Shown in pieces: positions 4,628 to 8,950 of a DNA stretch of 64,000 nt (positions are counted from its first letter, which is position 1; each line of letters opens with the position of its first letter). The stretch is from assembly GCF_917563915.1 (NCBI RefSeq), contig NZ_CAKJTI010000001.1:1-64000 (forward strand), in the 5' to 3' direction. The notes below the pieces were generated by a model. The model was not told the origin of the DNA, did not search any database, and saw only the letters and a program-made list of their open reading frames with translations. Source of the DNA: Bacillus rhizoplanae (GTDB lineage: Bacteria; Bacillota; Bacilli; Bacillales; Bacillaceae_G). The translations under genes were made by a program, and so were the position numbers.

Positions 4628-5746
4628 ATGATTAATCAAGAACGTTTAGTGAATGAATTTATGGAACTTGTGCAAGTAGACTCTGAAACAAAATACGAAG
4701 CTGAAATTTGCAAAGTATTAAAAGAAAAATTCTCTTCTTTAGGCGTTGAAGTATTTGAAGACGATACAATGGGTGAGACTGGTCACTGTGCTGGTAACTT
4801 AGTTTGTACATTACCAGCAACAAAAGAAGGCGTAGATACAATCTACTTTACTTCTCATATGGATACAGTTGTTCCTGGTAAAGGAATTAAGCCGTCTATT
4901 CAAGATGGTTATATCGTATCAGACGGCACAACCATTTTAGGTGCTGATGATAAAGCTGGACTTGCATCTATGTTTGAAGCGATTCGCGTGTTAAAAGAGA
5001 AAAATATTGCGCACGGAAAAATTGAATTCATCATTACAGTTGGTGAAGAATCTGGTCTTGTTGGTGCAAAAGCATTGGATCGTGAGCGTATTACAGCGAA
5101 ATATGGCTATGCATTAGATAGTAATGGAAAAGTTGGAGAAATCGTTGTTGCAGCGCCAACACAAGCAAAAGTAAATGCAATTATTCACGGTAAAACAGCT
5201 CATGCAGGTGTAGCGCCGGAAAAAGGTGTATCTGCAATTACAATTGCCGCAAAATCCATTGCAAAAATGCCACTTGGCCGTATTGATTCTGAAACAACTG
5301 CAAATATCGGCCGCTTTGAAGGCGGTACACAAACAAATATCGTTTGTGACTATGTAGAAATTTTTGCTGAAGCACGTTCCTTAGTAGACGAAAAAATGCA
5401 AGAGCAAGTTCGTAAAATGAAGGAAGCATTTGAATCTACAGCTAAAGAAATGGGCGGACAAGCAGAAGTAAACGTACAAGTAATGTACCCAGGATTTAAA
5501 TTTGCTGATGGTGATCACGTTGTAGAAGTTGCAAAACGTGCTGCTGAAAAAATTGGCCGTACACCATCTCTTCACCAAAGCGGTGGCGGCAGCGATGCAA
5601 ACGTAATTGCTGGTCACGGTATCCCAACAGTAAACTTAGCAGTTGGTTATGAGGAAATTCATACAACAAACGAAAGAATACCTGTTGAAGAATTAGTAAA
5701 AACAGCAGAAATGGTCGTTGCGATTATTGAAGAAGCAGCAAAGTAA
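4628..5746 (+). CDS. yqjE: M20 family peptidase (PepT-like, YqjE)
   Basis: This is a zinc-dependent cytoplasmic di- or tripeptidase of the M20/PepT group, 372 residues. The metal ligands are visible in order: SHMDTVVPG near residue 76, GADDKAGL near 108, GEESGLVGA near 138, DSNG near 161, and the closing His in YEEIHTTNE near 347. The dimerisation domain contains HAGVAPEKG. The start has an aggaggcgc ribosome site. A weak convergent terminator separates it from the disrupted gene beyond. The position matches B. subtilis yqjE. The exact peptide substrate is not settled. Confidence 0.85.
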   Translation: MINQERLVNEFMELVQVDSETKYEAEICKVLKEKFSSLGVEVFEDDTMGETGHCAGNLVCTLPATKEGVDTIYFTSHMDTVVPGKGIKPSIQDGYIVSDGTTILGADDKAGLASMFEAIRVLKEKNIAHGKIEFIITVGEESGLVGAKALDRERITAKYGYALDSNGKVGEIVVAAPTQAKVNAIIHGKTAHAGVAPEKGVSAITIAAKSIAKMPLGRIDSETTANIGRFEGGTQTNIVCDYVEIFAEARSLVDEKMQEQVRKMKEAFESTAKEMGGQAEVNVQVMYPGFKFADGDHVVEVAKRAAEKIGRTPSLHQSGGGSDANVIAGHGIPTVNLAVGYEEIHTTNERIPVEELVKTAEMVVAIIEEAAK

Positions 5747-5751
5747 TGTGG

Positions 5752-5785
5752 AAAAGGAGGTTGGCATAAACGCTAGCCTCTTTTA
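5752..5785. terminator. Bidirectional terminator between yqjE and the minus-strand membrane gene
   Basis: AAAAGGAGGTTGGC pairs with GCTAGCCTCTTTT with two G-U wobbles, followed by TTTT on the plus strand and A-rich sequence before it, so it can work both ways. Confidence 0.6.
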
Positions 5786-6079
5786 TTTTGATTCCACTGC
5801 TCTCACAAGGCGGATAAACCAGTATAGAAAAGTCCATGGAAGAATGTACAAAGTTGAAAATGGCAATAGAGACGAAAGAAGCCCGTGAGCATCAACGCCT
5901 ATGATTGGAAGTAGGTAATAGATGAGCAACAAAAAGAAAACAGATAGTAAAATTAGATAAAGGGGTTTTGGATATGTAGTCATTTCTTTTTTTACATATT
6001 TCCGAAATTCATCCCCATCTTCAAGCGCGTGACGGGCAAAAGCCCAGCGGTAAGGTGGGGATGAATTTCGGTTAGGCAT
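5783..6079 (-). pseudogene. 3' part of a small membrane-protein gene broken by the IscB element; now a chimeric 98-codon frame
   Basis: Residues from RKYVKKEMTTYPKPLYLI onwards encode two membrane helices and a basic tail, a plausible native protein of about 79-85 residues. The first 25 codons (6005-6079) lie inside the inverted-repeat right end of the IscB element. The missing native start lies on the other side of the element at 7599-7634: ATG TTC ACA CGG GAA TTT there joins in frame to CGG AAA TAT GTA here. Translation may now begin at the internal Met of KKEMTTY or not at all. The protein family is not recognised. Confidence 0.7.
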
Positions 6080-7598
6080 AGCCTAACTGATTTGTAAGAA
6101 CTGCCAATTGTTCGTATGGTGTATACGTTCCATATCTGGCATCTTCACTTGCTTATAGGATTTAGAAGGGTTTTGTATATATTGTCCATGTATATCTTGT
6201 ACGTATACCATTTTTCCTGTAAATCCTGTCACAAATCCTACTTGTCCCAATACCTTTACTTTATCACCTAAATAGATTCCATCTATATGTGGTGTATTTT
6301 TCTTGTTCCGTTTTGCACTTGTATTCTTTGTTTCCCTTCCTTTTCTTGCAGTTGCTTCATGCAGGGAGCGTTTTTTCTTTCTAAATTGCTTAATTCGAAA
6401 CTCACCGCTTTGATCATATTCTTGTAGTTGTGTTGAATGGGTAATCGCAATTGCGTCATTTACATGTGTTTTTGATAAACCTAATTCTTTTCGCTTCGGT
6501 GTGGTGTAACTGCCGTACGTAATGTCACAATCTAAACGATTCATGATTTGTAAACGCAATATATTCATAAAGGCAGTCTCTTTATATTGTTTTGGTTTTT
6601 TGAAACTGTGTTTGATTTTCCCTTGATGAAATTTTTGATGGCATTCATCGTGCACTGTTACAAGATTATCTGCCATGTCTGAACCGCCACTGCATCGTTC
6701 AATGATATGATGTGTATGCAAAATGCCACCTTTCTTCTTACAAATTTGACAGGTATATTGATCTCTCGCAAACACGTAATATCTTGTATTCCAAAAGCCA
6801 AAGGCATCCCCTTGTTGATACTCTATTCCTTGTATGTCAGGATTCTTTAGTTTTTGTGCATCAAATTTTCCTACTTTGACAATCACTTTTGGAGATGGTA
6901 ATAACGAGCGAAATATTTCAATCCAATGAATTTGGTTATCCACTCTGCTTTGAACCGATGGCGGCAACCATCCTTCTTTCTTTTTCCGATTGAGAAAACG
7001 TGCTTTTCGATATCTTGTTTTTCGTTGTCTTCTACCTCTGCGTAATGTAGCTCTCAGTGTAAGATTTTCTTTGACGTCCTGACGTAACTCAATGGTTCCT
7101 ATTGTTAGCACTTTGTCTTCAGTGGTAATCGCAATGCCGATATGCTTCGCACCACTATCAACACCGATTGTAACAAATTGTATAGTTTCTCCAGTAGCGT
7201 ATAGTAGTTGAATGGTGAATGGTGTGTATTTCACAATCTTTGCTTTTCCTTGTTTGAGAAGAAGCCGTGCCTTACGAGGACTGCAAGGCATGAGCGGTTC
7301 TCCTCTTAAATTCTTGACAAATACACGCATGTTTTGTCCCTCCTAAGAGTTTGTTTCCCTTCGCCAATGTTTGTAGGTGTTGGCAACTTCTCGTACAAGA
7401 AGGCATGTGGTTGACCGTTCCTTCCCAATCAGAACTGTTACAGAGCCACCATAGAGCCAAGAACTAGGGAATCATTCTTGGGTATGCAACCTACGAACGG
7501 GAGTCCACGAAAGACCGAGGCTAGACAACCAGGGCTTTTTTCAAGCCCCCACTTCAAAACGTGTTAGCGTTTAAGTGGTGGGTAGTTGACCCTCCTTA
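6002..7598 (-). mobile_element. IscB-type IS200/IS605-superfamily element without tnpA
   Basis: The element carries iscB and a long structured leader but no Y1 transposase gene, so it would need TnpA in trans. The right end is a perfect 15-base inverted repeat, CCGAAATTCATCCCC at 6002-6016 and its complement at 6057-6071, enclosing a smaller GGGC/GCCC stem. The left end begins near 7598 with hairpins typical of this superfamily. No target duplication is expected or seen. GAATTT (with CGG nearby) occurs at both junctions, so the exact borders are uncertain by up to 9 bases. Confidence 0.8.
6083..7330 (-). CDS. iscB: IscB RNA-guided nuclease (PLMP, RuvC and HNH domains)
   Basis: IscB proteins are omegaRNA-guided DNA nucleases and the ancestors of Cas9. 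In this 415-residue protein the PLMP domain (GEPLMPCSPRKARLLLKQGKA) is at 10-30, RuvC-I (TIGVDSGAKHIGIAI, Asp58) at 54-68, an Arg-rich bridge helix at 93-118, RuvC-II at 149-157, HNH (HTHHIIERCSGGSDMADNL ... HDECHQKFH) at 205-235, RuvC-III (KTHVNDAIAI, Asp292) near 287-296, and a C-terminal target-adjacent-motif domain. A strong aggaggg site precedes the ATG. The RuvC-II residue expected to be Glu is Lys152, so the RuvC site may be inactive while HNH looks intact. The stop overlaps a GTTAGGC/GCCTAAC hairpin. Confidence 0.9.
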   Translation of the reverse strand: MRVFVKNLRGEPLMPCSPRKARLLLKQGKAKIVKYTPFTIQLLYATGETIQFVTIGVDSGAKHIGIAITTEDKVLTIGTIELRQDVKENLTLRATLRRGRRQRKTRYRKARFLNRKKKEGWLPPSVQSRVDNQIHWIEIFRSLLPSPKVIVKVGKFDAQKLKNPDIQGIEYQQGDAFGFWNTRYYVFARDQYTCQICKKKGGILHTHHIIERCSGGSDMADNLVTVHDECHQKFHQGKIKHSFKKPKQYKETAFMNILRLQIMNRLDCDITYGSYTTPKRKELGLSKTHVNDAIAITHSTQLQEYDQSGEFRIKQFRKKKRSLHEATARKGRETKNTSAKRNKKNTPHIDGIYLGDKVKVLGQVGFVTGFTGKMVYVQDIHGQYIQNPSKSYKQVKMPDMERIHHTNNWQFLQIS

Positions 7599-7614
7599 AA
7601 ATTCCCGTGTGAAC
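7331..7614 (-). ncRNA. Putative omegaRNA of the IscB element, with donor-site guide at its 5' end
   Basis: The non-coding stretch just upstream of iscB holds a series of stems on the minus strand: a long CCCACCACTT...AAGTGGGGG hairpin with an inner AAACG/CGTTT (about 7545-7585), GGGCTT/AAGCCC (7532-7548), and CCAAGAA/TTCTTGG (7457-7481). In known IscB systems this is where the omegaRNA lies, with its guide taken from the host DNA flanking the left end. Here that would be the interrupted gene's first codons at about 7599-7614. The exact 5' and 3' ends are inferred. Confidence 0.65.
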
Positions 7615-7634
7615 ATACTTCTATATATTAACAA
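7599..7634 (-). pseudogene. 5' fragment of the membrane-protein gene interrupted by the IscB element
   Basis: On the minus strand an ATG at 7616 reads M-F-T-R-E-F before the element's TAA. An in-frame TTG at 7634, preceded by a ggagaggag site, is a possible earlier start. Removing the element restores one frame with the piece at 5783-6010. Confidence 0.55.
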
Positions 7635-7651
7635 TTCTCTCCTCTCCAATA

Positions 7652-7695
7652 TTGATTTTTTTATAATGTTTTTGATAAAATAAGAACAAATGTTC
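7652..7695 (+). promoter_or_regulatory. SOS box and promoter region of dinB
   Basis: GAACAAATGTTC at 7684-7695 is a perfect match to the Bacillus LexA (DinR) consensus GAACN4GTTC. It lies 16 bases before the dinB start. A TTGATT at 7652 and an A/T-rich -10 near 7675 form a plausible SigA promoter whose start point the LexA site would cover. Confidence 0.8.
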
Positions 7696-7711
7696 CTGTG
7701 AGGTGAGGAAA

Positions 7712-8950
7712 ATGCGCGAAATGTATCCGAAAAATGGCCGCGTCATTTTGCATGTTGATATGAATTGTTTTTATGCATCTGTTGAAATCGCACATGATGC
7801 ATCGTTGCAAGGTAAAGCGTTAGCGATAGCTGGGAATGCGAAGGAACGGAAAGGAATTATTGTAACGTGCAGTTATGAAGCAAGGGCGAAGGGAATTCGT
7901 GCGACAATGCCTGTTTGGGAAGCAAAACGATTATGTCCGGAACTTGTTATAAAACATCCAAACTTTGAGTTATACAGAGAGGCTTCTTTTGCTTTGTTTC
8001 AAATTCTTGCGCGGTTTACAGAAAAAATCCAACCTGTTTCAATCGATGAAGGGTATTTAGATATTACAGATTGCTATGGGCTCGGTTCACCGTTAGAAAT
8101 TGCTCAAATGATTCAACAAACATTACTAACAGAATTACAGCTTCCATGCAGCATTGGGATTGCTCCAAACTTATTTCTAGCAAAAACAGCCTCTGATATG
8201 AAAAAGCCGCTAGGTATTACAGTGCTTCGTAAACGTGATGTACAAGAGCTTCTTTGGCCGCTTCCAGTTAAAAAGATGCATGGGATTGGGAAGAAAACAG
8301 CAGAAAAATTAAAAGATGTACATATACATACGATTGGTGACTTAGCCGCTGGAAAATCTCATATTATTCGTTCTGTGATTGGAAATCATGGGCTGGATTT
8401 GCAAAAACGTGCAAATGGCATAGACAATAGAGATGTTGATCCAAGTCAAATGGGACAATATAAAACGATCGGAAATTCTATAACGCTGCCAAAAGATGTG
8501 GACGAAGAGAAGGAATTGCTAGATATGTTAGAGCGCTTATCTCAATCTGTGAGCCGAAGATTACAAAAACGTGCTCTCGTTACATATAATATTCAAATTA
8601 TGATTAAATACTATAATCGCCGAACGATTACGCGCAGTAAAATATTAGAAAATGCAATTTGGGAATCACCAGATATTTTTCAAGCAACAATAAGGCTATG
8701 GAAAAAACATTGGGATGGTGATCCTGTGAGATTACTTGGCATTACTGCCTGTGAATTAGAATGGAAAACAGAAGCGATTAAGCAGCTTGATTTATTTTCT
8801 TTTGAAGAAGATGCGAAGGCAGAACCGCTTTTGACAGTGATGGAACAACTAAATAGTAAATATGGTACGAAGGTTATTCAGCACGGCAGTCAAGTGTTTC
8901 GACAACAAGAGAGAACATTTCAGCAGAATTTAGAGAATAAATTTATATGA
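7712..8950 (+). CDS. dinB: DNA polymerase IV (Y family, DinB/YqjH)
   Basis: This is an error-prone translesion polymerase, 412 residues. The palm motif LHVDMNCFYASVE is near residue 12 and the catalytic SIDEGYLDIT near 111; helix-hairpin-helix GIGKKTAEKL is near 190; the little-finger domain follows. It ends in QLDLFSFE near 370, which resembles a sliding-clamp-binding motif. The ATG at 7712 was chosen because aggtgagg lies just before it; an upstream in-frame GTG at 7703 overlaps that site. The perfect SOS box predicts LexA repression and damage induction. The location fits B. subtilis yqjH (polY1). Confidence 0.9.
   Translation: MREMYPKNGRVILHVDMNCFYASVEIAHDASLQGKALAIAGNAKERKGIIVTCSYEARAKGIRATMPVWEAKRLCPELVIKHPNFELYREASFALFQILARFTEKIQPVSIDEGYLDITDCYGLGSPLEIAQMIQQTLLTELQLPCSIGIAPNLFLAKTASDMKKPLGITVLRKRDVQELLWPLPVKKMHGIGKKTAEKLKDVHIHTIGDLAAGKSHIIRSVIGNHGLDLQKRANGIDNRDVDPSQMGQYKTIGNSITLPKDVDEEKELLDMLERLSQSVSRRLQKRALVTYNIQIMIKYYNRRTITRSKILENAIWESPDIFQATIRLWKKHWDGDPVRLLGITACELEWKTEAIKQLDLFSFEEDAKAEPLLTVMEQLNSKYGTKVIQHGSQVFRQQERTFQQNLENKFI

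What the first reader, a model, noticed from the sequence alone, without database searches (positions are those of the whole stretch)
5783..7634. IscB element has split a small membrane-protein gene that can be rebuilt in frame
Sequence shows an ATG at 7616 followed by TTC ACA CGG GAA TTT, then the element. After its right end the frame continues CGG AAA TAT GTA AAA AAA GAA ATG to the stop at 5783. Removing the element gives one 79-residue (or slightly longer) frame with two membrane helices. GAATTT and CGG occur at both junctions, leaving a choice of joins that differ by 9 bases but keep frame. IS200/IS605-type insertion without target duplication is established; the clean in-frame scar makes the original gene and the target site visible.
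Basis: partly seen in the sequence, partly recalled or inferred. Interest (0 to 1): 0.78.

Follow-up and report, generated by a model that had tools for sequence, protein, structure and literature searches.

The report
IscB element between ribosome-site and start
A small mobile element carrying an RNA-guided nuclease gene sits just in front of a small membrane-protein gene, apparently between its ribosome-binding site and its start codon, rather than cutting the gene in two as first read.

Summary
The IscB element is real: omega-RNA (HEARO, RF02033) 7590-7349, iscB 7330-6083, right-end hairpin 6071-6002, all minus strand. The split gene rebuilt in frame is not supported. Most related elements begin at GTCAA(C/T), window base 7590, and end about 5-13 bases beyond a right-end hairpin, usually at NTRAA. 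Natural empty sites of three relatives confirm this, without target duplication. GAATTTCGG at 6010-6002 is an arm of the element's hairpin. The left flank's other two frames bring no ATG, GTG or TTG into the junction. The small gene most likely starts at ATG 5983 (66 aa, undamaged). The left flank ends in AAGGAGG, a Shine-Dalgarno sequence, and that ATG lies 11-12 bases after host DNA resumes: the element appears to separate ribosome-binding site from start codon. Two relatives sit in exactly such a gap, with natural empty sites. The window's own empty site could not be fetched; no Bacillus cereus-group genome was reached. IscB here has Lys where 25 of 25 aligned relatives have the RuvC-II Glu.

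The parts
5996..7590 (-). IscB element, about 1595 bases; left end from relatives, right end uncertain by one or two bases
   Evidence: Left end from relatives' GTCAA start and natural empty sites; right end from hairpin plus short linker followed by NTRAA in relatives
7349..7590 (-). omega-RNA scaffold (HEARO, RF02033)
   Evidence: cmscan 93.4 bits, gathering 83, full model 1-211
7591..7607 (-). host left flank that would form the 5' guide of the omega-RNA
   Evidence: abuts the scaffold; a guide of about 17 nt 5' of the scaffold is described for OgeuIscB (PMC9640706 passages); only one match in the window with up to 3 mismatches, itself
7591..7597 (-). AAGGAGG, Shine-Dalgarno sequence at the end of the left host flank
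   Evidence: sequence; AAGGAGG occurs 18 times in both strands of the window; upstream positions not conserved in relatives, so not element
7596..7598 (-).
   Evidence: translation of the left flank in three frames
6083..7330 (-). iscB, 415 aa
   Evidence: NCBIfam NF040563 guided_IscB 358.6 bits, cut-off 175; Pfam RRXRR and HNH
6875..6877 (-). Lys codon (residue 152) at the RuvC-II position that is Glu in 25 of 25 relatives aligned
   Evidence: alignment of 26 IscB proteins; codon AAA
6002..6071 (-). right-end hairpin; its outer 3' arm holds GAATTTCGG
   Evidence: inverted repeat arms 6002-6021 and 6052-6071, 95% complementary
5991..5995 (-). GTAAA, first bases of the right host flank, TAM-like
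   Evidence: NTRAA at the corresponding place in relatives; NTAAA is the TAM of OrufIscB (PMC13180657 passages)
5783..5983 (-). small gene as most likely originally started: 66 aa, hydrophobic, undamaged
   Evidence: in-frame ATG 5983; no ATG, GTG or TTG of the left flank can enter the junction; hydropathy
5783..6079 (-). 98-aa chimeric frame: ATG in the element, 3 bases after the iscB stop, read through the hairpin into the small gene
   Evidence: ORF list

Best explanation
A non-autonomous IscB/omega-RNA element (7590 to about 5996, minus strand) was inserted in sense orientation into the leader of a small membrane-protein gene, between its Shine-Dalgarno sequence (AAGGAGG, 7597-7591) and its start codon (ATG 5983), with no target duplication. 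Shown here: the element, its parts, and the end rule from relatives with natural empty sites. Inferred: the right end to within one or two bases, and the original arrangement of this locus. Likely working (inferred): the omega-RNA guide is the host leader just upstream, so it must be transcribed from the host side, probably from the small gene's own promoter. The guided RNP would recognise the element-free allele (guide match plus GTAAA). A transposase supplied elsewhere would move the element. The small gene loses its own ribosome-binding site and could now only be translated after iscB, by reinitiation at ATG 6079 (98-aa chimera) or at ATG 5983.
For: HEARO and IscB matches. Left end: 18 of 19 sites with a recognised left end start GTCAA and one (L061, placed by hand) ATCAA; the 20 bases upstream carry at most 0.28 bits per position. 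Clean natural empty sites: L098 against L171; L058 site, 16 of 18 loci empty and 2 filled; L060 site, of 14 loci matched 10 examined: 2 filled, 5 empty, 3 uninformative. At the L058 and L060 sites the element lies exactly between a Shine-Dalgarno-like sequence and ATG. All three left-flank frames: one stops at TAA 7598-7596, two are open but without ATG, GTG or TTG. SD-like sequence on the left and ATG of a frame of 45 codons or more within 20 bases on the right: 4 of 18 sites with both ends assigned, the window included, against 122 of 7455 NTRAA positions (1.6%) in background DNA, or 183 of 7455 (2.5%) if GTG and TTG count.
Against: The window's own empty site was not found in any collection reached. 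Whether the 66-aa frame is a gene is unproven: its codon score lies within random windows and an antisense frame scores higher, and no relative was found. The gap from AAGGAGG to ATG would be 11-12 bases; 42 of 46 long mechanical ORFs of the window with an SD-like motif have 4-13, mean 7.1. Of the 17 other sites with both ends, 14 are not in such a gap. Not every related left end is GTCAA: L039, L045 and L063 show other letters. No minus-strand promoter-like site was found between element and dinB.
Confidence: 0.7

Rival explanations
1. One reading: the element interrupts the coding sequence of a small membrane protein that starts at ATG 7616, and the two parts are in frame.
For: The letters are there and the frame can be described if the element starts right after GAATTT and ends before or after GAATTTCGG.
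Against: Requires TAAGGAGG upstream of GTCAAC to be element, although the 20 upstream positions are not conserved in 19 sites, and GAATTTCGG, an arm of the element's hairpin, to be host. With the left end shared by relatives the frame stops at 7598-7596.
Confidence: 0.06
2. The element's right end is immediately before ATG 5983 (the linker would be 18 bases), as in relatives that insert directly in front of ATGAA.
For: Relatives at the L058 and L060 sites insert exactly in front of ATGAA with linkers of 12-13 bases containing TATAAA.
Against: The closer relatives L096 and L098 have linkers of 7-8 bases followed by NTAAA. AAGGAGG would then touch the ATG with no spacing, and the motif would be ATGAC.
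Confidence: 0.12
3. The 66-aa frame is not a gene; the element sits in a plain intergenic region between pepT and dinB.
For: No relative of the protein found; codon score uninformative; in L037 (Bacillus sp. ISL-18) pepT and dinB are only 73 bases apart.
Against: A full AAGGAGG at the left junction and an ATG frame just past the right one: such a pairing of SD-like sequence and ATG frame is found at only 1.6-2.5% of comparable positions; the product is strongly hydrophobic over much of its length.
Confidence: 0.17

Closest known systems
IscB / OMEGA elements with HEARO omega-RNA (RF02033, NF040563)
   Same: Single iscB gene preceded by the omega-RNA, guide position at the host flank, TAM-like motif on the other flank, no target duplication in relatives with empty sites
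   Different: RuvC-II Glu is Lys here; sits between a Shine-Dalgarno sequence and a start codon
OrufIscB / NovaIscB
   Same: NTAAA TAM (PMC13180657, passages) fits the GTAAA, TTAAA and CTAAA right flanks of this group
   Different: OrufIscB is 492 aa by that paper; only the motif was compared
IS200/IS605 family
   Same: Hairpin right end; insertion without target duplication in relatives
   Different: No long frame other than iscB inside the element, so no tnpA; target sequence and transposase not identified

Membership tests
IscB (RNA-guided endonuclease, OMEGA) | Protein matches the curated IscB model above its cut-off | tested here: met
   NF040563 358.6 bits against 175
IscB (RNA-guided endonuclease, OMEGA) | HEARO omega-RNA directly upstream on the same strand | tested here: met
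   RF02033 93.4 bits, 7590-7349
IscB (RNA-guided endonuclease, OMEGA) | RuvC-I Asp, HNH histidines, RuvC-III His/Asp present | tested here: met
   GVDSG, HTHH, HVNDA in the alignment; roles of these residues are recalled
IscB (RNA-guided endonuclease, OMEGA) | RuvC-II Glu (needed for a working RuvC site, not for family membership) | tested here: not met
   Lys 152; Glu in 25 of 25 relatives aligned
IscB (RNA-guided endonuclease, OMEGA) | RNA-guided cleavage activity | not testable with these tools
   needs biochemistry
IS200/IS605 insertion sequence | Y1 transposase TnpA inside the element | tested here: not met
   the only long frame between 5996 and 7590 is iscB; the short frames were not scanned with profiles
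IS200/IS605 insertion sequence | Insertion without target duplication | tested here: inconclusive
   clean in three relatives with empty sites; not testable in the window itself
IS200/IS605 insertion sequence | Subterminal hairpins at both ends | tested here: inconclusive
   right-end hairpin found; left end lies in the folded omega-RNA, not analysed separately

The most novel reading that the evidence does not exclude
IscB elements tend to settle, in sense orientation, in the gap between Shine-Dalgarno sequence and start codon. Their right-hand motif (ATGAA, NTAAA) is what that gap or the start codon offers, and the 5' guide of the omega-RNA is then transcribed from the host gene's promoter, so the element borrows that promoter to make its guide and links its fate to a translated gene. 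In the window it did this with an IscB whose RuvC site appears disabled, that is, perhaps a natural nicking enzyme.
Probability: 0.3. Interest if true: 0.55.

Novelty: new member of a known kind. Interest (0 to 1): 0.36.

Why it matters
It corrects a split-gene reading and gives a usable rule for element ends (GTCAA on the left; hairpin, short linker and NTRAA on the right) backed by natural empty sites of relatives. It also points to a testable idea: that IscB elements use host leaders, with promoter and ribosome-binding site, to get their guide RNA made. Automatic annotation of this locus would probably call a 98-aa chimeric protein that starts inside the element (inference).

Tried and rejected
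Searching the small protein in genome contigs and viral contigs gave no relative; a local tblastn without low-complexity filter against the loci held by then gave only hits with E 0.13 or worse. The second genome-contig scan (dinB) and draws of 398 genomes of the class and 43 of one family with PepT and dinB showed nothing closer than 85% (PepT) or about 60% (dinB), so the locus's own empty site was not available. DNA searches with the element in plasmids (near) and phages (distant) found nothing; protein searches found 12 plasmid and 4 phage records, all under 60%. The small-gene flank had no match among plasmids, a short pattern from it none in viral contigs, and PepT none in viral contigs. 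L096 against L110: left flank 66% alike up to about the left end, right flank not alignable, so not used. L111/L116 and L112/L118: left junction exact, but only the first five or six right-flank bases agree before the host sequences diverge, so partial support only. Of 11 other plasmids matching the L111 flank, three were fetched. Short viral patterns for empty sites of L041, L047 and L038 returned only the contigs already known. Codon test of the 66-aa frame: uninformative, with an antisense frame scoring higher. A first automatic choice of left ends mis-placed several, the window's among them, and was replaced, in which 12 of 31 entries got no left end and were left out. Among these 12, L040, L058, L059, L076 and L077 do show GTCAA by eye; L045 and L063 do not. 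L039, whose left end also lacks GTCAA, was not among the 31. The left-end letters are conserved partly by construction, because they were the search pattern; only the lack of conservation upstream is informative. L080 has an SD-like left flank and ATGAAA on the right but no frame of 45 codons, and L114 has a start codon but no SD-like sequence; neither was counted.

Full report
What was checked. The window around 4800-8800 was read and its frames listed. On the minus strand lie a HEARO omega-RNA (7590-7349, 93.4 bits), an IscB gene (7330-6083, 358.6 bits to guided_IscB; RRXRR and HNH in Pfam) and a right-end hairpin (arms 6002-6021 and 6052-6071). On either side are a PepT-like peptidase gene (4628-5746, plus) and dinB (7703-8950, plus). 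The host is most likely of the Bacillus cereus group: PepT matches the solved chain 3gb0_A over its full length (733 bits). That 3gb0 is from B. cereus is recalled, not shown by the call.

The element's ends. Elements related to this one were gathered from viral contigs, whole genomes and plasmids. In most of them the omega-RNA region starts with GTCAA(C/T), and what lies upstream differs from site to site; L039, L045 and L063 show other letters there. Over 19 sites with a recognised left end (18 GTCAA, one ATCAA placed by hand; 12 of 31 entries dropped), the 20 upstream positions carry at most 0.28 bits each. At the right end a hairpin, judged by eye, is followed by an unlike linker of about 5-13 bases and then by TTAAA, CTAAA, TTGAA or ATGAA in most cases.

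Natural empty sites confirm this. For L098, genome G410 (L171) has the two host sides adjacent: the left side ends where GTCAAC begins and the right side resumes at TTAAA, with one base of ambiguity and no duplication. For the L058 site, 18 of 19 genomes of that genus matched; 2 of these 18 loci hold the element and 16 are empty, and the host resumes at ATGAA in 15 of them, with a small difference in L121. For the L060 site, 14 of 19 genomes matched and 10 of the 14 loci were examined: 2 filled, 5 empty and informative, 3 whose alignment ends before the site. For two Ligilactobacillus plasmids the left junction is exact, but the right host side agrees with the empty copy only for five or six bases before it diverges.

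Applied to the window, the left end is base 7590. The right end is close to 5996, after a linker of six bases, with host DNA resuming as GTAAA at 5995. One base further is also possible, and a right end directly before ATG 5983 is less likely. NTAAA is the TAM reported for OrufIscB (PMC13180657, passages seen).

The right copy is an arm of the element's hairpin. The left copy is followed, in host DNA, by TAAGGAGG; the frame from ATG 7616 ends there at TAA 7598-7596. The other two frames of the left flank are open into the junction but contain no ATG, GTG or TTG after their last stop. So, with this left end, no upstream start of the common kinds can have fed the small gene, and its first start in host DNA is ATG 5983, giving 66 residues to the stop at 5783, all on one side of the element.

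The new reading. The left flank ends in AAGGAGG. This heptamer occurs 18 times in the two strands of the window, 1.4 per 10,000 positions. The ATG lies 12 bases (or 11) after host DNA resumes; 42 of 46 long mechanical ORFs with an SD-like motif have a gap of 4-13, mean 7.1, so this is at the long end. An insertion between Shine-Dalgarno sequence and start codon is the simplest account. The same arrangement is seen with natural empty sites at the L058 and L060 sites, and L062 lies between AAAGGA and the ATG of a frame that looks like a lipoprotein (by eye; no empty site sought). In all, 4 of 18 sites with both ends assigned, the window included, show an SD-like sequence on the left and an ATG of at least 45 codons within 20 bases on the right, against 122 of 7455 NTRAA positions (1.6%) in background DNA from the window and fetched loci, or 183 of 7455 (2.5%) if GTG and TTG count. 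At the 2.5% rate the binomial figure for 4 of 18 is 0.0008, and for 3 of 17 without the window 0.008. The sample is small, its ends were set by hand, and L058 and L060 come from one genus, so these are guides only.

How it probably works (inference). The IscB guide is the stretch just 5' of the omega-RNA scaffold, about 17 bases (PMC9640706, passages seen), and here that stretch is host leader. It must be transcribed from outside the element. Sense insertion into a leader provides a promoter. In 16 of 19 sites the open frame on the left was longer in the sense direction, some by a slim margin, which fits but is weak evidence. No minus-strand promoter-like site was found between the element and dinB by a simple scan, whose 6 hits in the whole region are no more than chance gives. 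Few HEARO nucleases are found beside TnpA (PMC9755519, passages seen), so mobilisation in trans is likely; the only long frame inside this element is iscB. After insertion the small gene lacks its own ribosome-binding site. The iscB stop and an ATG at 6079 are three bases apart, and that frame runs through the hairpin into the small gene, so reinitiation could make a 98-residue chimera.

The nuclease. Among 26 aligned IscB proteins, the window's and 25 chosen from the loci held, the RuvC-II position is Glu in 25 of 25 relatives and Lys (AAA, 6877-6875) in the window. RuvC-I, HNH and RuvC-III residues are present. That this Glu is catalytic is established knowledge of RuvC-type nucleases, recalled. 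The enzyme may nick through HNH only or be decaying.

Limits. No genome of the cereus group appears to have been reached (best PepT 85%; best dinB about 60%), so the empty site of this locus is untested. The small protein has no relative in the collections scanned, and its codon score is uninformative, an antisense frame scoring higher.

Literature. Four searches on HEARO or IscB with target, start codon and Shine-Dalgarno terms were seen as listings cut at 10-15 papers each; none of the titles or abstract starts listed states the leader placement. I recall that the first description of HEARO in 2009 reported integration beside ATGA or GTGA, which would overlap with the start-codon cases; it was not read here. 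I therefore claim only a new member of a known kind.

Noticed in passing
window 6875-6877 (-): IscB residue 152 is Lys where 25 of 25 aligned relatives have the RuvC-II Glu; possible natural nickase or decaying enzyme.
   Followed up: partly
window 7684-7697 (+): AGAACAAATGTTCC in front of dinB looks like a LexA/DinR (SOS) box; the match to the Bacillus consensus is recalled, no tool tested it.
   Followed up: no
window 5753-5784 (+): Terminator-like hairpin of 13 pairs with a T tail on the plus strand, after pepT, overlapping the small frame's stop on the other strand.
   Followed up: no
L058 1277-2791 and L060 1276-2791, empty loci among L121-L144: Two IscB elements in one genus lie exactly between an SD-like sequence and ATG of different genes, with natural empty copies in congeners.
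   Followed up: yes
L060 1501-2844: The iscB frame runs past the element's right end and overlaps the start of the host gene in another frame, which might couple their translation.
   Followed up: no
L111/L116 and L112/L118: In two Ligilactobacillus plasmids the host sequence diverges from the empty copy right after the TAM-like bases on the right side, as if an adjacent stretch had been lost.
   Followed up: partly
L171 1374-1429: A sequence 76% like the right end of the L098 element lies downstream of the empty site in G410, perhaps a remnant.
   Followed up: no
L056 (G087): An IscB about 58-60% identical to the window's has no HEARO match at gathering score and no GTCAAC left end in the 330 bases upstream that were read.
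   Followed up: no
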